From positions 244,501-308,500 of the forward strand of contig NZ_CP050313.1 of assembly GCF_011765625.1 (NCBI RefSeq): a stretch of DNA of 64,000 nt. Reading direction: 5' to 3'. Origin of the DNA: Shewanella aestuarii (GTDB lineage: Bacteria; Pseudomonadota; Gammaproteobacteria; Enterobacterales; Shewanellaceae). The first letter of the stretch is position 1, and each line of letters opens with the position of its first letter. Under the pieces are notes generated by a model that saw nothing but the letters and a program-made list of their open reading frames with translations, did no database searches and had not been told where the DNA came from. Positions 12,457-30,065 of this stretch are shown here, one piece after another. The position numbers and the translations under genes are program-made.

Positions 12457-13200
12457 CTAGTAGTAACTTTTAAGATATTTTTTGGCGTATCTTTGAAGTT
12501 TTTCTTCAGGCGCAGATTCAGATAACGTAACCAGTATTGATTTGAACTTTTCATCGCCTGAAGATGCTAGCGCTTTAGCGAGCCATGCATAGGTATCAAT
12601 CGATAGTTTGGTGTGCTGTAATTGATCTAGACTGGTTAATTGTTCTGCAAGTTTTTGTAAAATGTACTCATTATAAATTCGCTCGTTGGTAATTTTTTTA
12701 GCGGCAATCCGTTTAAGCTCTAAGTCACCGCTAGCAATAGCATTAGCAAGTACATTAAGTTGGCGAGGTTGGCTTTCGTCAAAATGGTTTTTATTATTTA
12801 AAATCGGGTTCCAAAGGGCAAATTGACTAATATTTGTTAGCCCTTCTTGTGCATATTTACGTAGCTTTTTATGGTAGTTGCCATTAACAACTCCTTGCAA
12901 AGTGGGTTGATATTTCTCATTTCCTGAATAGCCTAAAGACTTCGCTAACCAAGATGAATAATCGATACTATTTTTTGTCGTTGCAAGTGGCAAGCTTGCC
13001 GTCAATTTAGCTTCAATATTGTCAAATATGCTGGGGTCATCAAAGCCAGATAAGATAAGTGACTCCATAGCTTGCCGTTGCTGTTGTTTATTATCACCTT
13101 GAAAAACAAGTGAGTAGTCTTCTAAAGTCAGCGTACTTGCAAAGCCAGCAGTGGTAAAGAAACTACTGCTGAGCACGAGTGCTAGGGCGATTTTTTTCAT
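12457..13200 (-). CDS. Secreted alpha-helical repeat protein of unknown function, end of ape operon
   Basis: A 247-residue protein with a Sec signal peptide (cleavage probably near AGFA-S at 21-22). The mature part is helical with two similar blocks: WLAKSLGYSGNEKYQ (about residue 84) and WLAKALASSGDEKFK (about 205). Each is followed by a Lys/Arg-rich Tyr-Ala helix (KLRKYAQEGL and KLQRYAKKYL). This looks like a HEAT-type or related duplicated solenoid. It follows apeR by only 15 bases, so it is co-transcribed. I cannot name a family. Periplasmic location fits a role near the export or envelope steps of the pigment pathway, but that is inference from position only. Confidence 0.72.
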   Translation of the reverse strand: MKKIALALVLSSSFFTTAGFASTLTLEDYSLVFQGDNKQQQRQAMESLILSGFDDPSIFDNIEAKLTASLPLATTKNSIDYSSWLAKSLGYSGNEKYQPTLQGVVNGNYHKKLRKYAQEGLTNISQFALWNPILNNKNHFDESQPRQLNVLANAIASGDLELKRIAAKKITNERIYNEYILQKLAEQLTSLDQLQHTKLSIDTYAWLAKALASSGDEKFKSILVTLSESAPEEKLQRYAKKYLKSYY

Positions 13201-13215
13201 GTCATGTCCTTATGT

Positions 13216-14445
13216 TTATTGCCAGCGTTTGAAAATCAATGATGTATTGATGCCACCAAAAGCAAAATTATTACTCATTACATAATGTGTGTCTAAGTAG
13301 CGCACATCATCTCGAATATAATCCAGTGAAGCGCATTCAGGGTCTACGTCAGTGAGGTTAAGGGTTGGGGCAAACCACTGCTCATTCATCATTTGAATGG
13401 TTACCCAAGCCTCTAGTGAGCCACAGGCACCAAGTGTATGCCCGGTATAGCTTTTTAATGATGAGATAGGCATGGATGAGCCAAATACAGCATGGGTGGC
13501 AGATGTTTCTGCAACATCACCTCTATCGGTAGCTGTGCCATGAGCATTGACATAGCCAATTTTATCAGCAGTTAAGTGAGCATCTTTTAGCGCTAAGCGA
13601 ATTGCCACTTCCATTGTTTCCGCGTTAGGTTGAGTTACGTGCAAGCCATCAGAGTTAGTACCAAAACCAACTAGTTCGGCATAAATATGTGCTCCCCTGG
13701 CTTTGGCGTGTTCGAGCTCTTCTAAAATTAAGGTGCAAGCTCCTTCACCAATAACTAAGCCATCACGATTGGCATCAAAAGGCTTTGGGGTTGTTTTTGG
13801 GGCATAATTAAGTGTACTTGTGGCAAATAGCGTGTCAAAAACTACGGCTTCCGTCGGGCAAAGTTCTTCGCCACCTCCCGCCAACATTACCGTTTGTTGC
13901 CCGTATTTTATGGCTTCATATGCATAACCAATACCTTGGCTTGCCGAGGTACATGCGCTGCTGGTGGTATGGATGCGGCCTTTTAAACCAAAAAATACGC
14001 CAATATTGACCGCAGTTGTATGTGCCATCATCCGAATATAGCTAGTCGCGGTTAGCCCCGACATAGAACCAGATTTAAGCATTTCACCAAATCCTATGAT
14101 GGGATCAGTACTACCAGTTGATGAGCCGTAAGCAACACCTGTTTCACCAGAGGTGAGAATTGGGTTAGCGAGTAAGCCAGCATCTTCAAGAGCCAGTTCA
14201 CTGGCACGAGTTGCCATCAATGATACTCGTCCCATTGAGCGAATTTTTTTACGGGAATAATGACTTGGCACTTCAAAGTCGGTAACGGGCGCAGCTAAGC
14301 GAGTGTTGAGTTCTGGATATTTATCCCATTCTTCCATCTTGATAACACAATTTTTTCTTGCCAGTAAATTGCTTTTGATGGTTTGCCAATCATGGCCGAG
14401 TGCAGAAATTCCGCCCATTCCAGTAATGACAACTCTCCGGCTCAT
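13216..14445 (-). CDS. apeR: APE beta-ketoacyl-ACP synthase (ApeR type)
   Basis: A 409-residue thiolase-fold condensing enzyme for polyene elongation. The active-site Cys is in SSACTSASQG at about 165-174, and the two His lie in NAHGTATDRGD (about 300) and KSYTGHTLGACG (about 338). In the Xenorhabdus APE system ApeR acts as a homodimeric ketosynthase alongside the ApeO:ApeC pair. The assignment rests on its place at the end of the apeO-P-Q-R series. It starts inside the apeQ stop (ATGA overlap). Confidence 0.85.
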   Translation of the reverse strand: MSRRVVITGMGGISALGHDWQTIKSNLLARKNCVIKMEEWDKYPELNTRLAAPVTDFEVPSHYSRKKIRSMGRVSLMATRASELALEDAGLLANPILTSGETGVAYGSSTGSTDPIIGFGEMLKSGSMSGLTATSYIRMMAHTTAVNIGVFFGLKGRIHTTSSACTSASQGIGYAYEAIKYGQQTVMLAGGGEELCPTEAVVFDTLFATSTLNYAPKTTPKPFDANRDGLVIGEGACTLILEELEHAKARGAHIYAELVGFGTNSDGLHVTQPNAETMEVAIRLALKDAHLTADKIGYVNAHGTATDRGDVAETSATHAVFGSSMPISSLKSYTGHTLGACGSLEAWVTIQMMNEQWFAPTLNLTDVDPECASLDYIRDDVRYLDTHYVMSNNFAFGGINTSLIFKRWQ

Positions 14446-15167
14446 ATCATGCCTCCGTTTACTGATATCACTTGGCGCGTTATGTAAGCAGCATCGTCAG
14501 ATAATAAAAATTTGGCCAGTCCAGCAATTTCATTTGGCTTACCCATTCGCTTCATTGGTACCATTTGGTCAACAATTTCTTTGGGAAAATCACTAACCAT
14601 GTCGGTTTCAATGAGGCCGGGGGCAATGCAGTTTACCGTAATTTTTCGTTTGGCAAGTTCTAATGAGAGTGCTTTAGTCGCGCCAATAATACCTGCTTTT
14701 GAAGCACTATAATTGACTTGTCCACGATTCCCCGCAATGCCCGAAACTGAAGCCAAGGTAATAATTCTCCCACCTTTTCTGCTTTGTACCATAGGCATAA
14801 TAGTAGGATGAATAACATTATAAAAGCCGTCTAGGTTAGTATGGATCACACTGTCCCATTCTTGCTCTGTCATCGCTGGAAAGGCGGTATCACGGTTAAT
14901 GCCAGCATTTAGAATTACGCCATAATAAGCACCATGTTCACTGATATCTTGTTCAATAGTTTGTTTAACGGTTACTCGGTCAGCTACATCAAACTGTAAT
15001 AAGCTCACTTTGCTGCCCAAAGCGTTCAGTTCATCTTGGGTGGCTTTCGCTGCGCTGATGTTGCTGTGATAATGCAGCGCAATATCATAGCCTGCAGCTG
15101 CTAATGAAATGGCAATTGCTTTACCTATTCCACGGCTTGAGCCCGTGATTAAAACTCTTTTATTCAA
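14442..15167 (-). CDS. apeQ: APE 3-ketoacyl-ACP reductase
   Basis: A short-chain dehydrogenase that reduces the beta-keto group with NADPH during polyene extension. At 241 residues it shows TGSSRGIG (cofactor loop) near 8-15, NAG near 85, and the catalytic Ser with YSASKAG (Tyr and Lys) at about 146-152. The frame is open six codons further, but the TTG at 15167 has a GGAG ribosome site seven bases upstream, so I chose that unusual start. The stop overlaps apeR by four bases. Confidence 0.85.
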   Translation of the reverse strand: MNKRVLITGSSRGIGKAIAISLAAAGYDIALHYHSNISAAKATQDELNALGSKVSLLQFDVADRVTVKQTIEQDISEHGAYYGVILNAGINRDTAFPAMTEQEWDSVIHTNLDGFYNVIHPTIMPMVQSRKGGRIITLASVSGIAGNRGQVNYSASKAGIIGATKALSLELAKRKITVNCIAPGLIETDMVSDFPKEIVDQMVPMKRMGKPNEIAGLAKFLLSDDAAYITRQVISVNGGMI

Positions 15168-15205
15168 GGTTGTTCTCCGTAACAAGATGGTATCAAGGTG
15201 TAGCC

Positions 15206-15697
15206 TTATGTAGTTTGGCTCTGCTTGATGTATTCATGGGTATCATCAGGTTGAAATACATTTACATTTGCAGATGCGACCAATGTTTGCTCGTGAAAAA
15301 TGGCACAATCAAATACCGCTAAGCCACTGTCTTCTTGATATAAACGAGTGATTTGGGTGCGGTATGACACGCCATTTGCAAAATAGGGGATGTGCATTTG
15401 TAGTTTGCGACTTCCCAATAAAAAGCCAACACGAATAGGTTGGTTTTGCATTTTAGCCTCTACGCCAGCTAATGCGGCAATGCTTTGCGCCATGTATTCA
15501 ATGCATACATAGTTTGCAACGCCGTTTAACGATTCATTAAAGTAAGGACTTTGCGGGGTGATATGGATAAGTGTGCTTAACCCATCTGGCTGATGAGATA
15601 AAATTTCATTCACTAAAATCATCGGTGAACGATGCGGAATAAAGTTGCTGATATCTTGTGCCAATAACGTTGGACTGGCTTGTTGTTCCTGTGTCAT
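15206..15697 (-). CDS. apeP: APE hotdog dehydratase ApeP
   Basis: A 163-residue FabA/FabZ-like hotdog protein that dehydrates beta-hydroxyacyl-ACP. The catalytic His is in FIPHRSPMILVNE at about 19-31, and the acidic partner in CIEYMAQSIAALAG at about 67-80. In APE systems ApeP works with the smaller ApeI, whose gene lies upstream in this operon (and is frameshifted here). The gene begins 11 bases after apeO. Confidence 0.82.
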   Translation of the reverse strand: MTQEQQASPTLLAQDISNFIPHRSPMILVNEILSHQPDGLSTLIHITPQSPYFNESLNGVANYVCIEYMAQSIAALAGVEAKMQNQPIRVGFLLGSRKLQMHIPYFANGVSYRTQITRLYQEDSGLAVFDCAIFHEQTLVASANVNVFQPDDTHEYIKQSQTT

Positions 15698-15708
15698 TTA
15701 GCTGGTCC

Positions 15709-16911: not shown

Positions 16912-16970
16912 TATTGTGTCTTTATGTGCGTTGGTTAATTTAGGTTGAATGAGCTAAAGGTTAATCTTGA

Positions 16971-17597
16971 TTATTGTAGCGTTTGAATCATGATATTCAC
17001 ATCAGCTTGTTTTATCTCAACAGTGATATTAGCTAACCATGGATTATATTGGCTGTATTCAACCGATATGATACTTAATGGTTGATTGTTATCGGCATGA
17101 GTATTAATAAGCTGGCTACATCGTTTGGTGCCGCAAATCTGTGTTTGCCATGATCCAGCAGATAAATGGTTATTAACAATGTCTACCGGCCAATAAACCA
17201 ATTGCATTATTGCCATCAAGTATTCTGCTTTAAATTGTTCTCCAAGTAAGCTGCTTTGTTGACTAATTAATGCGTGTCCATCGTAAACAATGGTAAACAA
17301 GGCTTGCCCTAATGGCGCGAGCCCAACTAATGTCATGCTATTGCCATCGATTTGTAGCTCAGTAATAAGTTGGTGGCTGATACCATTGCGACTAAAAGTA
17401 ACCATCTGGCTAATAGAGTCATTAACATTATGATTTGCTACTGGTGGCGCTAGGCAGTAATTAATATTATCCGCCAATGCAACGCAGGTCTGTCGTTGTA
17501 ATTGCTGACTGCAACCTGTAATAGTGCTGATACTTAGCAGCACAAGCCACATAAACCCCAGACTTGTGTATTTTAAGCGAGAAAAAAGCTTATGCAT
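16971..17597 (-). CDS. apeN: DUF3261 lipoprotein of APE cluster
   Basis: A 208-residue predicted lipoprotein. The frame is open 28 codons further upstream inside the flavoprotein gene, but the ATG at 17597 overlaps that gene's TAA (ATGCATAA) and opens a lipoprotein signal peptide with lipobox ITGC. DUF3261 proteins are regular members of APE clusters and are thought to take part in placing the lipid-linked pigment in the outer membrane together with ApeL and ApeM; no activity is known. Four Cys remain in the mature protein, two in QICGTKRCS. Confidence 0.75.
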   Translation of the reverse strand: MHKLFSRLKYTSLGFMWLVLLSISTITGCSQQLQRQTCVALADNINYCLAPPVANHNVNDSISQMVTFSRNGISHQLITELQIDGNSMTLVGLAPLGQALFTIVYDGHALISQQSSLLGEQFKAEYLMAIMQLVYWPVDIVNNHLSAGSWQTQICGTKRCSQLINTHADNNQPLSIISVEYSQYNPWLANITVEIKQADVNIMIQTLQ

Positions 17598-18852
17598 CGT
17601 TTGGCTCTTTGCATAGTTCAACAATGGTGTTAAGGCGGCGTTCTGATTCTGCAACAAAAGGGTTGTTTTGATCCCACGCATAGCCAGCTAAAATGGAACA
17701 AATCATTTGTTTGATTGCGGGGTTAGCCTGCTGATAAAAAATAACATCTTGAAAACGTCCATCATACCAAGCCTGCACGAAAGTTCTGAATGTATTAACC
17801 CCTTTCATTAATGGCTCGGCGTATTCTGTTTGCCAATTAATGGTTGCACCATTAAGCTGTTTTACCAAGCTATTTACTGCCATTGTGGCAGATTGCATTG
17901 CTATGGTCACACCGGATGAAAACACGGGGTCTAGAAACTCTCCTGCGTTGCCCAATAATGCAAATTTATCTGTAGCAAGTGTGCTCACATTAGCTGAGTA
18001 ACCTTGTAAAGTTGCACAGTCTTGGATGACTTTAGCATTGACGAGTAGCTGTTTTAGTCCTGGCTCTTGGTGCACTATAGTCATTAATTGTTGTTCTAAA
18101 TTGCCTTCTAGATTTGCGAGCAAATGAGGCTCACCCACAACACCAATAGAGCTGCGATTATCACTAAATGGAATTAACCAGTACCAAATATCTTTATGTT
18201 CAGGATGTACGCTTATCAAAATTTTATTTCGATCAAAATTCGGATCATTAATATTGTCTTCAATATGAGTAAAAATCGCACTGCGTAAGGGCAGGTTAGA
18301 GGGTTTTTCTAAGTTTAGTAGTCGAGGCAAAACACGCCCAAAACCACTCGCATCTAGAACAAATTTAGCTTGGACTTGATATATTTCATCTAGCTCGTTT
18401 GACACTGTGAGTAAAGGTGAATCAGTTAAGTTAATCTGTTTTACGCTGTGGCCGTAACGTATCTCTACCCCTTGTTGTATAGCCGTGTCTGCTAATAACT
18501 TATCAAATTTTCCACGCTGAACTTGAAAGGTTGTCCCAGGTCCAGGAGTAAACTTATCGGTAAAATCAAAGGTGGTGTAGCGGTCTTGGTGACGAAATGC
18601 GGCACCATCTTTAAATTGAAACCCCGCTTGGTTAACCGCCTCTAACATGCCTGCTTGTTCTATAAACTGCATACAGCAAGGAAGTAAGCTTTCACCTATT
18701 GAAAAGCGTGGAAAGTATTGTTTTTCAAGTACCACCACATGTTTACCTAGTTGGTTTAGCAAACTAGCGGCAATCGCGCCTGAAGGACCTGCACCAATAA
18801 TCGCAACATCAACAGATATGTTGTTCACTTGATTAGATTGATTCTTGTGCAT
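17590..18852 (-). CDS. FAD-dependent oxidoreductase, halogenase-like
   Basis: A 420-residue flavoprotein of the group containing FAD monooxygenases and flavin-dependent halogenases. The dinucleotide-binding motif GAGPSG is at about 20-25, RFSIGESLLP near 49-58 is shared with tryptophan-halogenase-like proteins, and GNAGEFLDPVFSSG near 305-318 is the second FAD motif. A WYWLIP segment near 223 resembles the halogenase W-x-W-x-I-P signature. The usual Lys in the halogenase active site cannot be assigned by eye. It sits between apeM and apeN with tight spacing. It may modify the aryl head group or polyene. Substrate and reaction are unproven. Confidence 0.75.
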   Translation of the reverse strand: MHKNQSNQVNNISVDVAIIGAGPSGAIAASLLNQLGKHVVVLEKQYFPRFSIGESLLPCCMQFIEQAGMLEAVNQAGFQFKDGAAFRHQDRYTTFDFTDKFTPGPGTTFQVQRGKFDKLLADTAIQQGVEIRYGHSVKQINLTDSPLLTVSNELDEIYQVQAKFVLDASGFGRVLPRLLNLEKPSNLPLRSAIFTHIEDNINDPNFDRNKILISVHPEHKDIWYWLIPFSDNRSSIGVVGEPHLLANLEGNLEQQLMTIVHQEPGLKQLLVNAKVIQDCATLQGYSANVSTLATDKFALLGNAGEFLDPVFSSGVTIAMQSATMAVNSLVKQLNGATINWQTEYAEPLMKGVNTFRTFVQAWYDGRFQDVIFYQQANPAIKQMICSILAGYAWDQNNPFVAESERRLNTIVELCKEPNDA

Positions 18853-18855
18853 TTA

Positions 18856-21225
18856 TTAAAATTTCCTTGAAATGAGTGTCATAAAGGGGGCGATCAGGAA
18901 GGTAAAACCAATACCAAGTAATAACGTTAAGCCAAAAAAATGAATCGCATGAGTTTGGCTTAATGCCAATAGCCCAAAGGCGAGCAATGTTGAACAGGCT
19001 GACATAAATATTGCCATCATAACCCCTCGACTTGAATGCTTGGCTTCGGCAAAAAATAAGCTGTAGTCTATGCCGATCCCTAAAATTAAAATGAGAGCTA
19101 ATGCGTGAAACAAGCTCAATGGTGACTGTGACAAGCCCAAACTGCTGAGGGTTAATAAAATCGCTAAGCTAGGTACACCAATGACCGCAATAGCCAATTT
19201 TACTGGGTATTTAACGCAAAAAATAATTCCTGCAATGATGAGAACTGCGAGCAATAAATAAAGGGTGAGTTGACGGTAGTGCCCCATTAACTGGGAGATA
19301 TCACCCACTTTATCGATCAATTGCACTTGCCCCACAGGTAGCTGTGTTTGTGTTAGTAGCTGTTTTAATGCCGGTAGATTATTTATACCAGTTAGTAAAA
19401 TAATTGCGCCTAACTCATTTTGCGTATTTTCTACCCACAATCCAGATAGCTCATTGCCGCTAATGGTCAGTAAATCTTTAATATTCAAATAGTGGTCTTT
19501 GGCATATTGATAATTTACTAATAGTGGTCGGCTAATTGCATTGCTTGTATTGTCTAATCCTAAGGTATCAATAATTTGTGGTAAATTTTGATAGATTTTT
19601 GCTTGTAACTGATAGTTTTGCTGTTGTTCAGCATGACTAGGTAGTAACTGTGCAAGGCTAAAATACTGGTTGAGTATCTTGCTAGATATGGCTTGTTCAA
19701 GCACAGGATTAAGCTGATGTAAGTTATCTATCAGTTGGTTTTCTGAGGTAGCCGAAACGAGTATAAATTGGTTATCAGTACCACCATTTAGCCATTGTCG
19801 CAGCTCATTTTCTTCATCGGTAATTGCCTGCGGGCTTTGCTGTAAATTACGAATGTCGTCATTATGTGTGACTTGAGGCAGACCAAAAACAAGTAACAAT
19901 AACATTAGCAATATGACACTTGATAATAAGGCGGGTTTGTTTGCACAGCGCTCTATTAAGTTTAAATAAGCTTGCGACCAAGTTAATGTTCGGGTGGATT
20001 TTAGTGGTCGATTTGCCAGCAGTGGGAAGGCTAGTACTAATGTTATATAAGCACCCATAAGTCCGGCTGTGCAAAATACGGCTACTTGTTGCATGCCTGG
20101 AAATGGGGTAAATCCAACGCCAATAAAGGCTAAAGAACTGGTTAATAATGCTAAGCTCATTGCAGGCAAAATACGTTGAATAATTTGTGCTGCATTATTT
20201 TGTGGGCTGTTGAGTTTATCGCAGTAGAAATGAAAACTGTAATCTATGGCGATTCCAATTAAGCTGGTTCCAAAGACTAATGTGAGTAAATGAATCTCTG
20301 TAAAGATGGCAAGGGTAGCAACTATTGCCATGACAAAGCCACTTGTTAATGTTAACAATGCAAGTGCCAATGGCACTAAGCTTTTAAAACCTAACCATAC
20401 TAAAGCCATTATCCCTAACAGTGAACAGCCACCAATCAAACTGATTTCAAACTTTGCTGAAGCTGTCGCGGCTTGTGCATGAAACAAAGCACCGGCTTTA
20501 AGTATGGTAACCTTGTTATCTGTTACTTGGCTAAATGCCACGTTTAATGCTGCTAATTGTTGCTGTTGTCCATCAGGATTAAATGCACTTTTGCGCCCCT
20601 TGGCGCTAATGATGGCTGCGACTTTTCCTTGATGCTGATTTAATAAAATATCTTGCTCGACCGTTAATTGTCCTTTTGGGCTCAGTGCCAACAAGTTATC
20701 GGTAAACAGTAGTAAAGGGTCTTGGCTAATTAATTGGCTATTGGCCACACCAAAAGCGCTATAGAGTTGTTGCTGAGTTTTTAAAATCAGTGTTTGAATA
20801 TCATCATTTAATAGCGACTGCTGTTGAGTGGGGGTGAGAAGATGAAAACGATGCTCAAAATACCATTTACCGATTTGATTATAGTTTGTGTCCCCTGCAC
20901 TAGTAATGTCACTAAAGGGGTGGCCCGGATTGTTTTGTAAGCTGTCGATAATGCTTTTGGCTGATTGAATTGCTGTCGTTTTATCATCGGCAATTACTGC
21001 AATATAAACACGATCCGCTAAGCGTTTTTCCACCTGATTGAGAGCCGTTTCAGCGAGTTGATTTTGGCTATAGTGAGGTAGCATCGCTAGCATGTCGCTT
21101 TGGATTTTTGCCCCCGATTGCCATAAAAACAAGCCATAAAAAGCAACTACGCTAAATAATAGAACCCAAAGACTAAAGCGCCATTTAGCAGATATGGTGT
21201 TTAGCTTGTTCAGCCATGTTGTCAT
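18856..21225 (-). CDS. apeM: MMPL/RND-type exporter of APE cluster
   Basis: A 789-residue inner-membrane protein with two repeats of one helix, a large periplasmic domain and five helices, giving about 12 membrane segments. Membrane stretches are obvious near 18-34, 260-400 and 440, and again near 665-785. Paired IGIAIDYSFHF and LGIGIDYSLFF segments mark the duplicated transmembrane helix 4, with Asp as in RND pumps. It probably moves the APE lipid across the periplasm, handing over to ApeL. It starts directly after the apeL stop. Confidence 0.88.
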   Translation of the reverse strand: MTTWLNKLNTISAKWRFSLWVLLFSVVAFYGLFLWQSGAKIQSDMLAMLPHYSQNQLAETALNQVEKRLADRVYIAVIADDKTTAIQSAKSIIDSLQNNPGHPFSDITSAGDTNYNQIGKWYFEHRFHLLTPTQQQSLLNDDIQTLILKTQQQLYSAFGVANSQLISQDPLLLFTDNLLALSPKGQLTVEQDILLNQHQGKVAAIISAKGRKSAFNPDGQQQQLAALNVAFSQVTDNKVTILKAGALFHAQAATASAKFEISLIGGCSLLGIMALVWLGFKSLVPLALALLTLTSGFVMAIVATLAIFTEIHLLTLVFGTSLIGIAIDYSFHFYCDKLNSPQNNAAQIIQRILPAMSLALLTSSLAFIGVGFTPFPGMQQVAVFCTAGLMGAYITLVLAFPLLANRPLKSTRTLTWSQAYLNLIERCANKPALLSSVILLMLLLLVFGLPQVTHNDDIRNLQQSPQAITDEENELRQWLNGGTDNQFILVSATSENQLIDNLHQLNPVLEQAISSKILNQYFSLAQLLPSHAEQQQNYQLQAKIYQNLPQIIDTLGLDNTSNAISRPLLVNYQYAKDHYLNIKDLLTISGNELSGLWVENTQNELGAIILLTGINNLPALKQLLTQTQLPVGQVQLIDKVGDISQLMGHYRQLTLYLLLAVLIIAGIIFCVKYPVKLAIAVIGVPSLAILLTLSSLGLSQSPLSLFHALALILILGIGIDYSLFFAEAKHSSRGVMMAIFMSACSTLLAFGLLALSQTHAIHFFGLTLLLGIGFTFLIAPFMTLISRKF

Positions 21226-22026: not shown

Positions 22027-22027
22027 C

Positions 22028-22465
22028 TTAATTTGTCACATCTGAAGAGACTAATAATGGTCGAATTTTATTTTGAAATACCTCAGGAGTAACAAAACAT
22101 AGCTCTTTAGTATTAATATTTACCGCAGCTTGAATGGTGTAACCTTTGGTGATTCGCGTTCCTGTTTGGGTATCAATGATTTGATAGGTGATTTTTAGAC
22201 GATTTTCCCACTCGACTATGCTTGCCCTGACAGTTACCGACTGATCGAAGGTACTACTTTTAACATACTTAACCTGCACATCAACGATAGGCCAAGCGAA
22301 GCCAGAGGCTTGCATTTGACGATAGTTGTAGCCAAGTTTGTCTAATAGTTTGCAGCGAGCAACCTCAAAATAACGCAAGTAGTTACCATGCCACGTAATT
22401 CCCATTGAATCGACATCATGAAAGGGGATGTTCATCTCCATGTCGATACTTAGGATGGTCTTCAT
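22028..22465 (-). CDS. apeK: Acyl thioesterase (4HBT hotdog family)
   Basis: A 145-residue 4-hydroxybenzoyl-CoA-thioesterase-type hotdog protein. The catalytic Asp is in HDVDSMGITWHGNYLRYFE near residues 14-32, the common signature. The frame is open five codons further, but the ATG at 22465 overlaps the ammonia-lyase stop (TAATG) and has a GGAGG ribosome site. In APE clusters ApeK is thought to release or edit acyl chains on the carrier proteins. Confidence 0.83.
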   Translation of the reverse strand: MKTILSIDMEMNIPFHDVDSMGITWHGNYLRYFEVARCKLLDKLGYNYRQMQASGFAWPIVDVQVKYVKSSTFDQSVTVRASIVEWENRLKITYQIIDTQTGTRITKGYTIQAAVNINTKELCFVTPEVFQNKIRPLLVSSDVTN

Positions 22466-24030
22466 TAGCAAACCTCCCATTGTGCTTGTTGAATTTTCTC
22501 AACAGTTTGGCGCAACACAGATTCAAGCGGCCTATCTTCAACCAGTAATTCAAAGTCTTGATTTACCTGAGCTAAGGTTTTTGCCAATGACGGTGTTAAG
22601 CTACTTTCATCCAACTCATTTTGTTTAATTCTTAGTTTTATACCTTGGCTCATCGCTAATAATGCCGCTGCCGCAACTTGTTCAGTAAGTTGTAATACGC
22701 GCATACAATCTCGAGCGGCAATGGTACCCATACTGACTTTATCTTGATTATGGCATTCTGTAGAGCGTGAAAAAACACTGGCAGGCATAGTATTTTTTAA
22801 TGCTTCAGCTGTCCAAGCGGAAACGCCAATTTGTACCGCCTTAAAGCCATGGTTTATGGCGCGGCGCTCTCCTGTTGAGGCCGAAAGGTTGGCTGGCAAG
22901 CCATTATTAAATTTAGTGTCCATGACTAATGCCATTTGACGATCAATTAGATCAGCGATATTGGCAATGGTGTTTTTCATTGAATCCATCACAAAAGCAA
23001 TGTGCCCACCGTAAAAGTGGCCTCCGTGTAAAATATGCTCGCCTTGTGCATCAACAATTGGGTTGTCATTAGCACTGTTCAGTTCGGTTTCTATAAACTG
23101 GCGCATAAATGGAAGTGCATCTTGTAATACGCCAATGATATGTGGTGCACAACGAATGGAATATCTGTCTTGCAAGCGGTCTGAATTACGCGGATGGGTG
23201 TGATGATTTAGATCATCGCGGATCCAGCTTGCTACTTGGCTTTGGCCCGGGTGAGGTTTAGCGGCAAATAAAATATCATCAAAATGATTAGAGTTACCCT
23301 TTAAGGTAAGTGATGCCATTGCAGTAATACGGCTAGATAAGCGCGCTAAATACTGGCCACGGTCAAAAGCTAAACAAGCTAGCGCAGTCATCACTGCGGT
23401 GCCATTCATTAGTGCTAAACCTTCTTTTGGGCGTAACGTTAATGGATTGACATTCAGTTGTTTATAGACTTCAGCCGTAGGGCGTCGCTCACCTTGGTAT
23501 ACCACTTCTCGCTCGCCAACTAACACTGCGGCAAGATAAGATAGTGGAGTTAAGTCTCCACTGGCACCCACTGAACCTTCTTCTGGAATTACAGGGGTGA
23601 TATTATGATTGAGTAACCATTCGATACGTTGTAACAATGCATAACTGACGCCTGATTTACCGACCGCAAGCGAATTTAAGCGGCATGCCATTACAGCGCG
23701 CGCCTGCATTGGACTTAATACATCTCCCAAGCCACAGCCGTGAAATCGTGATAAGTGTAGTGGTAATTCATGGACTAACTCTAGGCTGACATTAACAGTA
23801 CAAGAATCACCGTAACCAGTCGTGACACCATAAACCACGCCTTCTTCATGTAATAAACTGTCAATAAAACGCGCCCCCTTTTCAATGTAGTGTTGATACT
23901 CAGGGCTGTCATTGAGTTTGATGGGGGCCCCTTTTGCGATCGCAACAACTTGCTCAATATTCAATTGCCCTTGATAAAAGTCGATATGGCCTAAATGAAT
24001 GGTTTCGTGTTGCGAAATCGAATGGGTCAT
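22465..24030 (-). CDS. MIO-type aromatic amino acid ammonia-lyase
   Basis: A 521-residue histidine/tyrosine/phenylalanine ammonia-lyase family member. The Ala-Ser-Gly triad that forms the MIO cofactor is at 156-158 (GSVGASGDLTPLS). The lid-loop Tyr lies in VTTGYG near 73, and NSANDNP and YGGHIAF are conserved. The residues at the substrate-selectivity position read Phe-His (96-97), unlike Ser-His of histidase, His-Leu of bacterial TAL or Phe-Leu of PAL. No histidine-degradation genes are near. Position between apeJ and apeK suggests it makes the aryl-acrylate starter, probably 4-coumarate from tyrosine, for the polyene. Substrate is inferred. Confidence 0.85.
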   Translation of the reverse strand: MTHSISQHETIHLGHIDFYQGQLNIEQVVAIAKGAPIKLNDSPEYQHYIEKGARFIDSLLHEEGVVYGVTTGYGDSCTVNVSLELVHELPLHLSRFHGCGLGDVLSPMQARAVMACRLNSLAVGKSGVSYALLQRIEWLLNHNITPVIPEEGSVGASGDLTPLSYLAAVLVGEREVVYQGERRPTAEVYKQLNVNPLTLRPKEGLALMNGTAVMTALACLAFDRGQYLARLSSRITAMASLTLKGNSNHFDDILFAAKPHPGQSQVASWIRDDLNHHTHPRNSDRLQDRYSIRCAPHIIGVLQDALPFMRQFIETELNSANDNPIVDAQGEHILHGGHFYGGHIAFVMDSMKNTIANIADLIDRQMALVMDTKFNNGLPANLSASTGERRAINHGFKAVQIGVSAWTAEALKNTMPASVFSRSTECHNQDKVSMGTIAARDCMRVLQLTEQVAAAALLAMSQGIKLRIKQNELDESSLTPSLAKTLAQVNQDFELLVEDRPLESVLRQTVEKIQQAQWEVC

Positions 24031-24034
24031 CGCG

Positions 24035-25719
24035 TTATTTTTCCTGCTGATAAGTTGTTATGTTGCGTTGGCTTTGACTGTCTTTACGCCAAAAGTCATA
24101 GAAATTAAACCATTGTGATGGTGCAATTTTGGCGAAGTGTTCTAAACGTTGACTGTATTTTGTCATCGCGAGAGTTAAGCGTTCGGTTCGGCCTTTTCTT
24201 GGGCCCTTTAAGGTAGTAGCTAATTGCTCTACATGTACTTGATAGCGTCCATTTTGTTTAATGCAAAACATGGTAAATACTGGACAGTCTAATAAGCTAG
24301 CCAGAATAAAAGGGCCTTGAGGGAAGGGGCTGGCTTACCTAAAAAGGGAAGATCGATCACACGACCTTGGCTGTTCGCTGAGGTTCTATCGGCAGCTATG
24401 ACGACCAACTCACCTTGTTCTATTTTCTGTTGTAATAACATGGCAGTGCTAGGGTCTAGCTCATTTACTTGAATTAAATTTAAGCTGCTTTTTGGATTAA
24501 GCTGTTGCAGCACCTTGTTAAAGTTTTCTGCATGGTGAGTGAGAACCATGACATTAACTTTAACTCTTTTCTGGTGGATTGATATTGCCCTGCATAGCTC
24601 TAGATTACCTAAATGTGATACCAATAATACTGCGCCTTTACCGGTTTCAATTTGTTTGGCAAGAATTTGTCGATCAGCAAAATCAACTTCACTGAGTTTA
24701 ATGCGATCGCACCAAGCATCTATTCTGTCTAATGCCGCATTACCAAAGGATAGAAAATGATTCAGGCTATCTTGCCAACTAATTTTCTTAGTGCTGTCAC
24801 TAATATTTTGTACTTGCTGTAAAAAATCGATCGAGGCCTTACGTGCCGTGCTGCCAGTTAAGAAGAAATAGCCAATAACCGGGTACATGATGGCGCGACA
24901 TAACCAATGACCTCCAAAGCGGTAGCTTTCGGCTAATAGCTTTATTCCCCAATAACTGCCACGCTCTTGCATTGTTGACCAATGGCGATTGTCATGATGA
25001 CTTGCTCGTTTTTGTGGAAGACGTTTAAGCATGCCGAAAAATAACTTAGTGTGCATCCAGCTGATACGCAAATTATCCTGGAACCCCTGAAAGTGACTGA
25101 TGCCATTTTCAGGGTAAATAACTTTAGTCGGTATTTGAATAACTGGCGTTTTTTTCCAATAAAGCTTGACCATGATTTCAATATCAAAATCCATTCTTTC
25201 ACCTAAAGATTCATACTGAAATAAAGCTTCCGTTGCGGCCAGAGGATAGATTCTAAAGCCACACATGGAATCTTGAATGTCGAAGCTTAGGGTTTCAATC
25301 CATACCCCAAAATGCGTGATATAACGGCCGTATAATCGCCCTTTAGGAACGGAGTCATCATATTCAGGCTTACCAGATATTAATGCTAGTGGGTTAGCTT
25401 GAGCACAATCTATCATATTTGGTATGTCTGCAAGATTATGCTGCCCATCAGCATCAATCTGTAATGCATGACTAAAGCCATCAGCAAAGGCGGCGCGCAA
25501 ACCAGTGATAACCGCAGCGCCTTTGCCACGGTTAAAAGGATGATGGATTAAAGTTACCCACGGAAACTTATCTGCCATCTCTTGCAGCACGTAGCGGGTT
25601 TCATCTTGGCTGCCATCATCAATTAAATAACAAGGTAGATTAAATTGCGCCAGTTGTGTGAGTGTTTGCTCAATAACCTGATGATGATTGTAATTGGGGA
25701 TAATCAACGCCAATTTCAT
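24035..25719 (-). pseudogene. apeJ: apeJ: glycosyltransferase-acyltransferase fusion, one-base frameshift
   Basis: Two adjacent frames together make the ApeJ fusion. The first part (24289-25719) has a family 2 glycosyltransferase domain (IPNYNHHQVIEQT, DDGSQDET, DADGQH, residues 1-235) followed by an LpxL-like acyltransferase (VSHLGNLELCR near 365). It runs out of frame at GKPAP and stops at 24289. The second part continues as FPQGPFILASLLDCPVF into MFCIKQNGRYQVHVEQ and ends at 24035. Adding one G to the G4 run at 24326-24329 (C4 on the coding strand) restores 561 residues and the LPFLGKPAPFPQGP motif of LpxL-type enzymes. Sequencing error or true mutation cannot be separated here. The end lies 5 bases from the ammonia-lyase start. 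Confidence 0.85.
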
Positions 25720-25722
25720 AAA

Positions 25723-26096
25723 CTACTCGCCTTGCATATTGGTGGATTGTTTTGCCAGTACGATGCGACCAGAGGCGAAGCGCTTATCGGCGTCGTTATA
25801 TTGAAAAGTTAACTTGGCTTTGCTTGGACTGTGGCTAATAGTTAAATAAACATATTGGTCAGGAAGCAATAATTGTTGAAACTTTAGCACTTCAACACTG
25901 GCAACTTGTGGTTCATAACCAAATGCTTTGCAACCAAGTTGAATGGCCCAATCAAGCTGAGTAACACCAGGCAAAACAGCTTGCTCAGGAAAGTGGCCTT
26001 TAAAAAAATCTAACTGGGCCCCACAAATATGTACCAAGTGATACTATCACCTTGCTGCTGTTGGCTAATAATGGTCGGTAGTATTGATTTAATCAT
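25723..26096 (-). pseudogene. apeI: apeI: small APE dehydratase, one-base frameshift near 5' end
   Basis: An ApeI-type hotdog dehydratase (GHFPEQAVLPGVTQLDWAI, with His in GHFP). The clear ATG at 26096 overlaps the apeH stop (ATGATTAA) and reads MIKSILPT into QQGDSIT, but then shifts frame and stops. The main frame resumes as LVHICGAQLDFFKGHF. One extra A at 26036-26037 (T on the coding strand) joins them into 124 residues, the usual ApeI length. As given, the long frame could start only at a TTG (26037) with no visible ribosome site. It pairs functionally with ApeP. Broken either by mutation or by a read error. Confidence 0.8.
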
Positions 26097-27456
26097 GGTA
26101 AAACAACGAAACCAGCTCTGCTTGAATTCGTTTTCCTTCTGAGTTTTGAGGGATTCTAACCGGGTAACGCCAGCGCCTTGGTAGCGTCACGCGCTCAAAC
26201 TGGCTGAGTAAATGCTTTTTAATTAGGTTGTTGACAGCTAGTTTACCTTGCTCTGCTAATAAAGCCTGTCCTTCAGGAGTTAATTCAATTATCGCACCTA
26301 ACATTTGTCTTGGTTGGGTTAAAAATGAAATTGCTGCATCATGAATTAAAGGGTGACTGCATAATAAATGCTCCATTTGCGCCATTGAAATGCGTTTTTC
26401 TTCAATTTTAACTATGCGATCTACACGATTAAGTAAATGAAATTGATGTGAGCTGATTAAGTCAATACTGTCGTCGCAGCGATACCATTGGTCACTGTTT
26501 TCCAAATAAGGTGATTTGATGCAAAGTACACCGTTATTACCAGTTTGTTTTATGCTAATCGCAGAGAATGTTTGCCAAGGCTCTTGTTGAGTTAATTGTC
26601 GTCGATGTGCTATTCCGCCTGTTTCTGTGCTACCAAAAATTTCAATAGGAAGTTGGCCATAACAGTGCAGGATATCATTGGCTGCTTGATAGCTTAACGG
26701 ACCCCCCGAGCTAAAAATTAAGCTAGGACGATTATTCTGTGGTTGATTTTCAAGTGCTTCTGGTAATCTAGATAATTGAGCCGGGCTACTTACTAAACAG
26801 AGGTTTGGCATAATGGCCAAGTAATAGCTTAAGGTTTCAGGGTACTCAATTTGATCGCTTAAAAAGGGCCTTTGTGCTGCCAGAGGCCATAGAATTTTAA
26901 ACAGTAAGCCGTAAATATGTTGATGAGATACTGTGGCGAGGACTGAGCAGTGTGGTAAATGTGCAGCAAACGTATGATCTAATATCGATACTTCTGCATC
27001 CAGTTGAGTGATATTTTTACGAATTGCTTTAGGCTCACCACTACTGCCAGATGTAAATAAAATTAACTCACCAAATTTGGTAACTTTGGGCCACTTACCC
27101 GCAGGTAATGCTAGTTCATGTGTCAGCGAAATAAAGGCTTTAATTTCACAAATAGGGCTGTCAGCAATAACAGCATCAAATTGATGATTGAGCTCGCTGA
27201 TTGTTCCAGGTTGGGTATTTGCTGGTAGAATAATAGTTTTACCAGCAAGAAGCCCTGCGCAAAGCGCAGCTGCAAATAAGTCGCTTTGCTTGGCGGCTAA
27301 CAACCATCTTTGGCTATTATGGCTAATAAGTTGATGGTAGAGGAAGGCTACCTGGGCAGTAAAACGTTCACTGGTCACAATGTCGTGATGATTGAAACTA
27401 ATTAATTGCTGAGTATTTGGTCCGTTTTTAAACCAATTGAGTAATAAATTATCCAT
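26089..27456 (-). CDS. apeH: AMP-forming acyl-ACP synthetase of APE cluster
   Basis: A 455-residue ANL-superfamily ligase. The P-loop ILFTSGSSGEPKAIRK sits near residues 130-145, and the adenylate motif FGSTETGG near 267-274. In APE systems ApeH activates the aryl carboxylic acid starter and loads it on the acyl carrier protein ApeE. It lies downstream of the two carrier genes and apeG, with an 8-base overlap (ATGGATAA) with apeG. Confidence 0.85.
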   Translation of the reverse strand: MDNLLLNWFKNGPNTQQLISFNHHDIVTSERFTAQVAFLYHQLISHNSQRWLLAAKQSDLFAAALCAGLLAGKTIILPANTQPGTISELNHQFDAVIADSPICEIKAFISLTHELALPAGKWPKVTKFGELILFTSGSSGEPKAIRKNITQLDAEVSILDHTFAAHLPHCSVLATVSHQHIYGLLFKILWPLAAQRPFLSDQIEYPETLSYYLAIMPNLCLVSSPAQLSRLPEALENQPQNNRPSLIFSSGGPLSYQAANDILHCYGQLPIEIFGSTETGGIAHRRQLTQQEPWQTFSAISIKQTGNNGVLCIKSPYLENSDQWYRCDDSIDLISSHQFHLLNRVDRIVKIEEKRISMAQMEHLLCSHPLIHDAAISFLTQPRQMLGAIIELTPEGQALLAEQGKLAVNNLIKKHLLSQFERVTLPRRWRYPVRIPQNSEGKRIQAELVSLFYHD

Positions 27457-28000
27457 GTTGTTTTAACCAAAAAGTGCGGTAAATCCATTCTCCACCCAAT
27501 AACCCGCCAATCAATAAATACGCAATTAAGCCATTATAGATAGTCCATATTGTTATATCGGTAGCCATTGCTGTGTAGAGCGCCATCAAACCGTTAAAGA
27601 CAAATAATCCACACCATATTTTTGTTACCTTGATTAAATATGGTGTGGCTTGTGAAGGTAAATCAGGTTCTTTTAGCCTTGCTAAGCGTTCAATCAAACT
27701 TGGTCCTTGGATTAATGAAAAACCAAACAAGGCCAACATACTCAAATTAATGACAACAGGGTAATACAATAACCAGTCATTACGCTGGGCTATAAAGCTT
27801 GCGCCTGTAAGTAATATTCCAATGACTAGCGGCACTAGCATTGGCTTTAATTGATTTTTATTAAGTGATAATCGGATGATTAATAACCCACATAAAATCA
27901 AGCCAATTAACCCATTAGGTAAATACTGCAAGCCAAAATAAACGGCAATGGGGTAGCCCATTACTGCGAGTATAGACAGTACTTGCACAAAGGCTTTCAT
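27449..28000 (-). CDS. apeG: APE cluster membrane protein (COG4648 type)
   Basis: A 183-residue integral membrane protein with about five or six hydrophobic helices spread over the full length and few charged residues outside loops. It corresponds by position and type to ApeG, the conserved COG4648 membrane protein of APE clusters, function unknown. Its start overlaps the apeF stop (TAATG) and its stop overlaps apeH. Confidence 0.72.
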   Translation of the reverse strand: MKAFVQVLSILAVMGYPIAVYFGLQYLPNGLIGLILCGLLIIRLSLNKNQLKPMLVPLVIGILLTGASFIAQRNDWLLYYPVVINLSMLALFGFSLIQGPSLIERLARLKEPDLPSQATPYLIKVTKIWCGLFVFNGLMALYTAMATDITIWTIYNGLIAYLLIGGLLGGEWIYRTFWLKQHG

Positions 28001-28248
28001 TATTGCTTCATTAAACCATCAATGGCGATTACCACATCATTTACAGTGCGAACAGCTTTAAACTCTTCAGGTTGAATTTTTTTTCCTGTCAATTGCTGTA
28101 ACTTAATGACTAAATCAACAGCATCAATACTGTCTAAATCTAATTCTTCATATAGGGATGCATCAAGGCTAATATCATCACGCTCAACTTCAAATTCATC
28201 GACTAAGATGCCACATAGCATTTCATAAATTTGTTCACTGCTTTGCAT
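28000..28248 (-). CDS. apeF: Acyl carrier protein ApeF
   Basis: An 82-residue acyl carrier protein. The phosphopantetheine attachment Ser is in the classic DSID motif (ELDLDSIDAVDL, about residue 37). The whole protein is a single acidic helical carrier. It is the second of two carriers encoded in tandem, and ends at the apeG start. Confidence 0.9.
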   Translation of the reverse strand: MQSSEQIYEMLCGILVDEFEVERDDISLDASLYEELDLDSIDAVDLVIKLQQLTGKKIQPEEFKAVRTVNDVVIAIDGLMKQ

Positions 28249-28256
28249 GTCGACTC

Positions 28257-28514
28257 CTAAACTTGCTGTGACTCAATAAAACTTGCCAGACTGGCTACGC
28301 TATGAAAATGCGCTTTAGTTGCTTCTGAGTTAGCTTCAATTTTGATATCAAATTGTTTTTTTATTGCTAAACCAAGCTCAAGGGCGTCAATTGAGTCTAA
28401 ACCTAGGCCTTCACCGAAAAGTGGTGCATTGGTGTCAATATCTTCGATTGTTATATCTTCAAGATCTAAACAATTAATAATTAATTCTTTGATTTCATTA
28501 TTTAAGTTTTTCAT
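28257..28514 (-). CDS. apeE: Acyl carrier protein ApeE
   Basis: An 85-residue acyl carrier protein with the modified Ser in GLGLDSIDALEL (about residue 40). In characterised APE systems ApeE is the carrier used for starter loading by ApeH and chain extension. Its start overlaps the apeD stop by one base (TAATG), and an 8-base gap separates it from apeF. Confidence 0.9.
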   Translation of the reverse strand: MKNLNNEIKELIINCLDLEDITIEDIDTNAPLFGEGLGLDSIDALELGLAIKKQFDIKIEANSEATKAHFHSVASLASFIESQQV

Positions 28515-29344
28515 TAATTTTTCTTATTGGTTGTTTGTATTACGGGGGTTACTAATTGTTGTATATAAAATTGTTCAAGTTCTCGGGTGAGTTGCCGGGC
28601 TTTTTTTGATTCGCTGTCAGCCAACTCATTGTAATCTTCACAAGAGAAAAGTTTGCCGACTTCAACGGACATATTAATCGTTTGCCGAGGAATTTCATAC
28701 CATGATTGTTGTTTGGTTAACCCAGCAACATCAGTCCTTAAAACGATAGGTAAAATACTTGTGTTAGTTCGAATGGCAATATTTGCAGCTCCACGAGCAA
28801 AAGGGTTAATTATGCGGCCTGTGATTGTTCGTGTTCCTTCAGGAAAAATAATTAAATTGGTGCCGCTATCTAATACCTGCTGACAATCTTGTAACAGTAA
28901 GTCAGCCCCTCTATTGGGGATATAGCCTGCGCCAGATAAAATACTACGGATTAATGGGTTACGCCAAAGCCCCTGCTTGACTACACAACTCACATTAGGC
29001 ATTAAGCTAATGAGCACTACTACATCTACTAGGGTAGGATGATTGGCTATTATAATAGTGTGTTGGCTGTTTACTAATGAAGCTAGGTTTTGTTGTTTAA
29101 CTTTGATGACACCTGTAAATGTCAGCATCGCGACGAAAAATTTAAACATCAAACTGACGGTTTTTTGTACTCGTGCAACTTGCTTTGCCTTGGAGCCTGA
29201 TAATAGATAGATGAGCGGTAATATGGTTAGCGAACAAACTAGTCCACCTAGGCCAAAAGTGATATAGCATGCAACACCGCCCAACCATCTAGGAATATAA
29301 TCAAGGCCAGATAGTTTTTTAGCGGTTACTACGCTATTAGGCAT
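28514..29344 (-). CDS. apeD: 1-acylglycerol-3-phosphate-type acyltransferase of APE cluster
   Basis: A 276-residue LPLAT/PlsC-family membrane acyltransferase. The H-x4-D catalytic motif is HPTLVD and the phosphate-binding motif FPEGTRT; both are intact. Two hydrophobic helices lie near 25-75. I chose the ATG at 29344, which overlaps the apeC stop (ATGCCTAA), over an upstream ATG at 29380. It probably links the aryl polyene chain to a lipid or glycerol head group. Confidence 0.85.
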   Translation of the reverse strand: MPNSVVTAKKLSGLDYIPRWLGGVACYITFGLGGLVCSLTILPLIYLLSGSKAKQVARVQKTVSLMFKFFVAMLTFTGVIKVKQQNLASLVNSQHTIIIANHPTLVDVVVLISLMPNVSCVVKQGLWRNPLIRSILSGAGYIPNRGADLLLQDCQQVLDSGTNLIIFPEGTRTITGRIINPFARGAANIAIRTNTSILPIVLRTDVAGLTKQQSWYEIPRQTINMSVEVGKLFSCEDYNELADSESKKARQLTRELEQFYIQQLVTPVIQTTNKKN

Positions 29345-30065
29345 AATGATGTAAATTCCATTGCCAATGACACATTTCACCCTGAATATTCTTTCCTGAT
29401 GCGATATGGTGGATTAATTCACTCAAGCATATTTTATTGTCGGTAATGTTCGGCTTTGCTGAATCAATCGTTAATTGAGCAATCGCGTTAGCTGATTTTG
29501 TTGCGCTTGCATCTAGCACTAAACCTAATGCAATGGGTAATTCGACTTCGTTAATAAACTCATTATAAACAGGCGGTACAGGATCATCACCAAACACTAA
29601 TAATATAGGTTGTTGATATTGTTTTATTTGTGCAAATGTTTCGATTAATGCTTGAGGTAAGCTTTGTGCGCCAGCGGCAATTGATGTGGAGCAGGCCGTG
29701 TTGTTATTAACAATGCCATAAATACCACTGGCAGTATTGTGCACTGATTGGCTAAAAGCCATGGGAGACAGAGGCGTTTTGCTAATCACATCTTCGAGTA
29801 AGCCAATAGTACGATTTAATTCGCCATGACGAGAAGCGAACACGCTGCGTAACTGAGTCGCTTGGCACTCAAACGCGACAGTCAACATCATTTTTGTTAA
29901 CCGACTAAAGCGTCTACGCTGCATTGCAGGCACTTGAACTAGTGAGGGTGAAACTGAATTGAGATCAGAAGATTGATTTGCTGATTGCCAATGGCACCAG
30001 CTTTCATTGTCTTGAAAGTCAGGAGTCCATCCTCCCCAAGATAAAATATCGAATGCTAGTTGCAC
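29337..30065 (-). CDS. apeC: Chain-length-factor-like ketosynthase partner
   Basis: A 242-residue short beta-ketoacyl synthase-like protein (ketoacyl-synt_2 type), the first gene of the ape operon. SVHNTASGIYGIV near 107-119 is the family hallmark. In characterised systems ApeC has no condensation activity and pairs with ApeO as chain-length factor. Here the elbow reads TACSTSIAAG, with a Cys where the ketosynthase nucleophile would be. The start is GTG with an aagagg ribosome site. No terminator separates it from the genes that follow, so it is the likely first gene of a run of about 19 genes. Confidence 0.82.
   Translation of the reverse strand: MQLAFDILSWGGWTPDFQDNESWCHWQSANQSSDLNSVSPSLVQVPAMQRRRFSRLTKMMLTVAFECQATQLRSVFASRHGELNRTIGLLEDVISKTPLSPMAFSQSVHNTASGIYGIVNNNTACSTSIAAGAQSLPQALIETFAQIKQYQQPILLVFGDDPVPPVYNEFINEVELPIALGLVLDASATKSANAIAQLTIDSAKPNITDNKICLSELIHHIASGKNIQGEMCHWQWNLHHYA

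What the first reader, a model, noticed from the sequence alone, without database searches (positions are those of the whole stretch)
12457..30065. Aryl polyene operon with an ammonia-lyase and a halogenase-like flavoprotein inserted
The gene order from 30065 downwards follows apeC to apeR of characterised aryl polyene (APE) systems, but has two extra genes: an MIO ammonia-lyase between apeJ and apeK and a flavoprotein between apeM and apeN. With the loading enzyme ApeH and carriers ApeE/ApeF, this predicts that the operon makes its own aryl-acrylate starter and perhaps modifies the head group. The order and families are seen; the chemistry is inference.
Basis: partly seen in the sequence, partly recalled or inferred. 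Interest (0 to 1): 0.72.

Follow-up and report, generated by a model that had tools for sequence, protein, structure and literature searches.

The report
Standard Shewanella aryl polyene pigment operon
This is a Shewanella gene cluster for a membrane pigment of the aryl polyene class, and the two genes that looked inserted are ordinary parts of such clusters in Shewanella and in Vibrio relatives, so the finding is mostly routine.

Summary
In detail: apeC to apeR lie in order on the minus strand (30065 to 13216), with an MIO-type aromatic ammonia-lyase between apeJ and apeK and a halogenase-like flavoprotein between apeM and apeN. Both are extra relative to E. coli clusters, but not peculiar to this genome. 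All 31 Shewanella loci examined that hold the lyase have apeJ-lyase-apeK, and 29 of 31 have the flavoprotein in the same slot. Of 80 Vibrio-type loci (the best kept of 289), 75 have apeJ-lyase-apeK, Aliivibrio fischeri among them; 55 of 80 have the flavoprotein, there upstream beside apeB. A cluster-encoded lyase that supplies 4-coumarate is already shown for flexirubin (FlxA). Sequence signatures favour an aromatic (probably tyrosine) ammonia-lyase over a histidase. The flavoprotein has the halogenase-type motifs checked, but its chemistry is unproven. My idea that it replaces the methyltransferase ApeB was refuted by the Vibrio loci. New here: apeI and apeJ are frame-broken while the three nearest relatives are intact, no apeA/apeB lies beside the cluster, and the 12457 ORF is not an ape gene. 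Verdict: member of a known kind; low interest.

The parts
29337..30065 (-). apeC, chain-length factor partner (Ketoacyl-synt_2)
   Evidence: PF13723 E 2.7e-63
28514..29380 (-). apeD, lysophospholipid acyltransferase
   Evidence: PF01553
28257..28514 (-). apeE, acyl carrier protein
   Evidence: PF00550; NF006617
28000..28248 (-). apeF, acyl carrier protein
   Evidence: PF00550; NF003757
27449..28000 (-). apeG, membrane protein
   Evidence: profile match shared with E. coli apeG; no Pfam hit
26089..27456 (-). apeH, acyl-ACP synthetase (AMP-binding)
   Evidence: PF00501
25723..26099 (-). apeI dehydratase, frame-broken: the N-terminal part lies in another frame; break between about 25989 and 26013
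   Evidence: PF22818 on the 104-aa 3' part; two-frame tblastn match to the relative's intact ORF
24035..25719 (-). apeJ glycosyltransferase/acyltransferase, frame-broken near 24325-24331: a 476-aa ORF and a displaced 78-aa ORF
   Evidence: PF00535, PF03279; two-frame match; E. coli ApeJ is one 558-aa gene; nearest Shewanella ApeJ 565 aa
22465..24030 (-). aromatic amino acid ammonia-lyase (MIO type), probably tyrosine ammonia-lyase
   Evidence: PF00221 E 1.5e-160; motif counts; comparison with own HutH
22028..22480 (-). apeK, 4HBT thioesterase
   Evidence: PF13279
21226..22026 (-). apeL, LolA-like carrier
   Evidence: PF03548 and NF053544 below cut-off
18856..21225 (-). apeM, RND/MMPL-type exporter
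   Evidence: weak HpnN/MMPL matches; profile match shared with E. coli apeM
17590..18852 (-). FAD-dependent halogenase-like flavoprotein
   Evidence: PF04820 and PF01494; 3nix over residues 13-414, E 9.3e-108; motifs
16971..17681 (-). apeN, DUF3261 LolB-like lipoprotein (true start probably inside the ORF)
   Evidence: PF11659
15709..16911 (-). apeO, ketosynthase
   Evidence: NF006618 over cut-off
15206..15697 (-). apeP, dehydratase
   Evidence: PF22817 E 2.5e-20
14442..15185 (-). apeQ, ketoreductase FabG2
   Evidence: TIGR01831 over cut-off
13216..14445 (-). apeR, ketosynthase
   Evidence: NF006587 over cut-off
12457..13200 (-). secreted-looking 247-aa protein of unknown family after apeR; not an ape gene
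   Evidence: no Pfam/NCBIfam match; a homologue is seen in 13 of 31 Shewanella loci, some of which may be cut short of it

Best explanation
An aryl polyene (APE) cluster in its Shewanella form, of the type also found in Vibrionaceae. Shown: gene families, order, conservation at one place across the genus, and the same lyase slot in Vibrio and Aliivibrio. Inferred: the lyase deaminates L-tyrosine to 4-coumarate, ApeH loads it on an ACP, ApeR, ApeO-ApeC, ApeQ and ApeI/ApeP elongate it into the polyene, ApeD/ApeJ/ApeK anchor or release it, and ApeL/M/N carry it to the outer membrane. The flavoprotein tailors the aryl group, perhaps by halogenation (less sure, about even). In this assembly apeI and apeJ read as broken, so the pathway may be impaired here unless these are sequencing errors.
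For: Families and order. Conservation: of 31 Shewanella loci chosen because they hold the lyase, 31 have J-lyase-K, 30 the DUF3014 neighbour, 29 recG and 29 the flavoprotein between M and N. Linkage: in 274 gammaproteobacterial genomes the lyase (56% identity or more) occurs in 13; all 13 also have an ApeP match (36 of 274 overall), 12 of 13 within 7 kb on one strand. Flavoprotein at 40% identity or more in 15 of 274, 13 of 15 within 3 kb of ApeP. Lyase: Ala-Ser-Gly in 52 of 52 aligned rows (window included); Gln429 stands where the genome's own HutH has Glu, Phe96-His97 where HutH has Ser-His. Flavoprotein: Lys, WxWxIP and FxxPxxSxG in 42 of 42 rows, GxGxxG in 41 of 42 with one row incomplete (30 rows are Shewanella, no Vibrio row is in this count). 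Precedents: FlxA/FlxY; halogenase genes in xanthomonadin-type clusters; a lyase in the F. johnsoniae APE gene set.
Against: ApeH shows no coumarate signal over E. coli ApeH. The genome has a chorismate lyase UbiC match, the 4-hydroxybenzoate source of E. coli. The lyase's selectivity pair (Phe-His) fits none of the classic patterns exactly. The A. fischeri cluster has the flavoprotein as well, yet from memory its reported pigment is methylated and not halogenated. Two of 31 Shewanella loci lack the flavoprotein and three of 35 same-genus genomes lack a lyase of this type. The two frame breaks may make this copy inactive.
Confidence: 0.7

Rival explanations
1. The polyene starts from 4-hydroxybenzoate as in E. 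coli and Xenorhabdus; the lyase makes coumarate or cinnamate for another purpose or as an alternative starter.
For: UbiC match in the genome; ApeH no closer to a 4-coumarate ligase than E. coli ApeH.
Against: The lyase lies within 7 kb of ApeP in 12 of 13 survey genomes that have it and keeps one slot over Shewanella and Vibrionaceae; FlxA precedent.
Confidence: 0.2
2. The flavoprotein is not a halogenase but a hydroxylase or other FAD monooxygenase or oxidase that acts on the aryl group or polyene.
For: Best solved relative is 3nix, named only flavoprotein/dehydrogenase; present in A. fischeri, whose pigment is, from memory, not halogenated; among the 120 proteins listed the NCBI names are mostly NAD(P)/FAD-dependent oxidoreductase, a minority tryptophan halogenase.
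Against: The four halogenase-type motifs checked are kept in 42 of 42 rows bar one incomplete row; the next solved relatives are halogenases (7fco ChlB4, 5buk, 5dbj PltA, 3i3l CmlS), the first three acting on carrier-bound pyrroles (recalled).
Confidence: 0.45
3. The two frame breaks in apeI and apeJ are sequencing or assembly errors and the operon is intact.
For: Both lie near short homopolymer runs (seen by eye); among roughly 31 further ORFs compared outside the window one more is broken in this genome, so the rate is not clearly special to this cluster.
Against: Two adjacent genes of one pathway are hit and none of the other 41 comparable ORFs of the window (some of these ORFs are antisense shadows).
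Confidence: 0.55
4. The lyase is a histidase duplicate unrelated to the pigment.
For: Same superfamily; HutH models are among its NCBIfam hits, below cut-off.
Against: A HutH over both NCBIfam cut-offs exists elsewhere in the genome; the cluster lyase is 32% identical to it and has Gln for its Glu.
Confidence: 0.04

Closest known systems
APE cluster of Vibrio (Aliivibrio) fischeri, APE_Vf type (here A. fischeri emors.2.1, L253)
   Same: apeC-J, lyase, apeK-R in the same order; lyase 66% and flavoprotein 61% identical. PMC8253772 states that the ES114 cluster was expressed heterologously and holds all genes needed for APE (passage); I compared another strain, not ES114.
   Different: There the flavoprotein sits with apeB in a divergent upstream unit; the window lacks apeA/apeB and has the flavoprotein between apeM and apeN.
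APE cluster of E. coli CFT073 (apeA-R; table in PMC8253772) and of E. coli M-17 and TUM13936
   Same: Core genes C-R in the same order.
   Different: No lyase, no flavoprotein; has apeA and apeB; whole apeI and apeJ.
Flexirubin cluster of Chitinophaga pinensis (FlxA tyrosine ammonia-lyase, FlxY 4-coumarate-CoA ligase)
   Same: Cluster-encoded ammonia-lyase starting an aryl polyene (PMC3992019, passages).
   Different: Bacteroidetes; dialkylresorcinol ester; the window lyase scores 340 bits on the FlxA model against a cut-off of 700.
Xanthomonadin-type clusters with a halogenase gene
   Same: Halogenase gene in an aryl polyene cluster (PMC3949708 and PMC3691225, passages).
   Different: Starter from chorismate (XanB2-type); orthology of those halogenases to this flavoprotein was not tested.

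Membership tests
Aryl polyene (ape) cluster | KS plus chain-length factor (ApeO/ApeC), ApeR, ketoreductase ApeQ | tested here: met
Aryl polyene (ape) cluster | ApeI/ApeP dehydratase pair | tested here: inconclusive
   ApeP whole; ApeI recognised but frame-broken
Aryl polyene (ape) cluster | Two ACPs, ApeH-type acyl-ACP synthetase, LolA/RND/LolB-like export genes collinear with E. coli | tested here: met
   apeL and apeM only by weak hits and profile match
Aryl polyene (ape) cluster | Yellow cell-bound aryl polyene carboxylic acid product | not testable with these tools
   needs extraction and mass spectrometry
Tyrosine ammonia-lyase (MIO family) | Ala-Ser-Gly triad that forms MIO | tested here: met
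   52 of 52 aligned rows
Tyrosine ammonia-lyase (MIO family) | Not the histidase Glu at the second selectivity site | tested here: met
   Gln429 against Glu of the own HutH; the meaning of the site is recalled and fits the use of motif 2 in PMC3992019
Tyrosine ammonia-lyase (MIO family) | Classic TAL pair His-Leu at the first selectivity site (recalled) | tested here: not met
   Phe96-His97 here; FlxA, a proven TAL, also lacks the TAL/PAL motif there
Tyrosine ammonia-lyase (MIO family) | Activity on L-tyrosine | not testable with these tools
   needs an enzyme assay
Flavin-dependent halogenase | GxGxxG, catalytic-type Lys, WxWxIP, FxxPxxSxG (motif names recalled) | tested here: met
   42 of 42 for the last three, 41 of 42 for the first with one row incomplete
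Flavin-dependent halogenase | Halogenating activity | not testable with these tools
   needs an assay; closest solved relative 3nix carries no halogenase name
Flexirubin tyrosine ammonia-lyase FlxA (NF053541) | Curated score of 700 bits | tested here: not met
   340 bits; the own HutH scores 333

The most novel reading that the evidence does not exclude
Gammaproteobacterial APE clusters switch between two starter routes: tyrosine-derived 4-coumarate (lyase-bearing, common, perhaps ancestral) and chorismate-derived 4-hydroxybenzoate (E. coli type), through repeated loss of one gene at the apeJ-apeK junction; and a conserved flavoprotein, itself gained, lost or moved several times, halogenates carrier-bound aryl polyenes in marine bacteria.
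Probability: 0.25. Interest if true: 0.45.

Novelty: new member of a known kind. Interest (0 to 1): 0.2.

Why it matters
It corrects the picture that the E. coli apeA-R set is the full standard: a lyase in the apeJ-apeK slot is the usual state in the Shewanella genomes examined and common in Vibrionaceae, which makes the starter unit of many marine APE pigments a testable question. The flavoprotein is an APE-linked accessory of unproven chemistry that could be assayed directly.

Tried and rejected
Rejected: the idea that the flavoprotein replaces the methyltransferase ApeB. In the first set (60 unnamed loci, two E. coli loci and the window) none of the 42 rows with a flavoprotein over 150 bits held apeB in the fetched stretch; the one hint against it, a 48-aa edge fragment beside apeB in L088, I first overlooked. 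In the 80 Vibrio-type loci all 55 with the flavoprotein over 150 bits also have apeB, which refutes the idea. In the class survey G220 also carries both, on different contigs.

Rejected as evidence: the 4-coumarate-CoA ligase model hit of ApeH, because E. coli (75 bits), A. fischeri (95) and a lyase-free cluster (82) score higher than the window (68).

Led nowhere: Cimermancic 2014 is not held, so the A. fischeri pigment structure is recalled. Searches for aryl polyene with ammonia-lyase or tyrosine ammonia-lyase listed few papers; of the five I looked at passages of two: PMC11596576 only lists hutH and aryl polyene clusters apart, PMC5932025 names a histidine ammonia-lyase in the F. johnsoniae APE gene set. 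No described Shewanella case turned up in these listings; that is no proof that none is in print. Passages of PMC9966250, PMC11573776, PMC10837877 and PMC8041823 held nothing on the lyase in APE clusters. Orthology with xanthomonadin halogenases was not tested. The frame-break background is small because the two genomes are not collinear beyond the window: the 400-kb comparison gave only 3 comparable ORFs.

An ApeR tree (34 rows chosen by hand out of 142 loci in hand plus the window, short search, 11 of 31 inner branches open) needs 6 changes of lyase presence and 8 of flavoprotein presence; lyase presence is not more clustered than shuffled labels (185 of 500 shuffles as low), so the ancestry of the lyase is not settled. 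Two labels are loose: L088 was scored flavoprotein-positive on a cut-off fragment, and L102 lyase-positive although its lyase is 57 kb away.

Full report
The window lies in a genome of 4.47 Mb (window = G000:C1:244501-308500) whose nearest named proteins are from Shewanella, such as S. gaetbuli and S. holmiensis. From 30065 down to 13216 on the minus strand the genes match apeC, D, E, F, G, H, I, J, then an aromatic ammonia-lyase, then K, L, M, then a flavoprotein, then N, O, P, Q, R (profile comparison with E. coli clusters). apeG, apeL and apeM have weak or no database hits of their own and rest on profile match and position. The ORF at 12457-13200 has no Pfam or NCBIfam match and is not an ape gene.

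The two extra genes are real relative to E. coli: the clusters of M-17 and TUM13936 and the table for CFT073 in PMC8253772 (passages, sections 5 and 6) lack both. That does not make them unusual. Of 35 same-genus genomes searched, 31 hold a lyase at least 77% identical; all 31 of these loci have J-lyase-K, 29 have the flavoprotein between M and N (L082 and L085 lack it), 30 have DUF3014 and 29 recG in the fetched stretch. The other four genomes: G017, G020 and G026 have no lyase of this type, and G023 has a 59%-identical one in a cluster that carries apeA and apeB. Of 20 other lyase loci (L086-L101, L103-L106), 19 have J-lyase-K (L087 is a 6.5-kb contig). A scan with a Vibrio-type lyase found 289 relatives, of which the best 80 loci were kept; 75 of these have J-lyase-K, among them Aliivibrio fischeri. 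The other five are four loci with few recognised ape genes and one with I-lyase-K.

Linkage was tested without choosing by cluster. In 274 gammaproteobacterial genomes the ApeP family matches in 36 (28 over its cut-off), the lyase at E 1e-80 or better in 13, and the flavoprotein at 40% identity or more in 15 (47 at E 1e-20 or better; the rest are distant kin). All 13 lyase genomes have ApeP, 12 of them within 7 kb on the same strand (G307 is 57 kb apart). Of the 15 flavoproteins, 13 lie within 3 kb of ApeP (G108 on the other strand); G182 has no ApeP match and G296 has it on another contig. Seven genomes have both genes. So both are ape-linked and can occur apart.

The lyase keeps Ala-Ser-Gly in 52 of 52 aligned rows. 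A second lyase of the genome passes the HutH models (742 and 680 bits against cut-offs of 524 and 539); against it the cluster lyase has Gln429 for Glu and Phe96-His97 for Ser-His, and it stays below the HutH cut-offs. PMC3992019 (passages) reports that FlxA, a tyrosine ammonia-lyase with 1010-fold preference for tyrosine over phenylalanine, also carries a histidase-like first motif and a TAL/PAL-like second one, so this pattern fits a tyrosine or phenylalanine lyase but does not settle which. Loading of coumarate by ApeH is inferred. The 4-coumarate ligase model scores this ApeH at 68 bits, E. coli ApeH at 75, A. fischeri at 95 and a lyase-free cluster at 82, so it gives no support. UbiC is present, so 4-hydroxybenzoate should be available as well.

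The flavoprotein is closest to 3nix, named flavoprotein/dehydrogenase (residues 13-414, E 9.3e-108; from Cytophaga by recall), then to halogenases such as ChlB4, 5buk, PltA and CmlS. The Lys, WxWxIP and FxxPxxSxG motifs (names recalled) are kept in 42 of 42 rows and GxGxxG in 41 of 42; 30 of these rows are Shewanella (window included) and no named Vibrio locus is among them. Halogenase genes are reported in xanthomonadin-type clusters (PMC3949708, PMC3691225, passages). Against a simple halogenase role, A. fischeri has the gene while its pigment is, from memory, dimethylated and not halogenated. I first thought that the flavoprotein replaces ApeB; the Vibrio loci, where all 55 with the flavoprotein also have apeB, refute this.

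In the window apeJ and apeI are each split over two frames. Of 43 comparable ORFs of the relative G035, these two alone are broken in the window; the reverse comparison finds 0 of 44. With further stretches 3 of 74 are broken in the window's genome, the third outside the window (L141), and 2 of 84 in G035, both at one place. So the background is not negligible, and errors at homopolymers remain possible. No second strain of the same species was seen in the 120 best ApeJ hits listed: the nearest are 81-85% identical and 565 aa long. In E. coli, deletion of apeJ left partial pigment and most core deletions abolished it (PMC8253772 section 6).

Conclusion: a normal member of the ape family in its Shewanella form, with a plausible tyrosine-derived starter and an unproven halogenase-like tailoring step, possibly damaged in this strain.

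Noticed in passing
window 24035-24271 and 25723-26099: apeJ and apeI are frame-broken here but whole in the three nearest relatives; real decay or assembly error is open.
   Followed up: partly
window 12457-13200: A 247-aa secreted-looking protein without a known family follows apeR; a homologue is seen in 13 of 31 Shewanella loci.
   Followed up: partly
L082 (G001): A Shewanella ape cluster that looks decayed: apeL and apeM in pieces and no flavoprotein.
   Followed up: no
L093 (G023): A same-genus genome whose lyase is only 59% identical and whose cluster carries apeA/apeB as in E. coli and Vibrio; possibly acquired from outside the genus.
   Followed up: no
L101 and L102 (G307): An ape cluster split into two parts 57 kb apart, the lyase with one half and the flavoprotein (one stop inside the match) with the other.
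   Followed up: no
L096-L098, L108-L111: In several lineages apeJ is two ORFs of about 250 and 340 aa, a different split from the break in the window.
   Followed up: no
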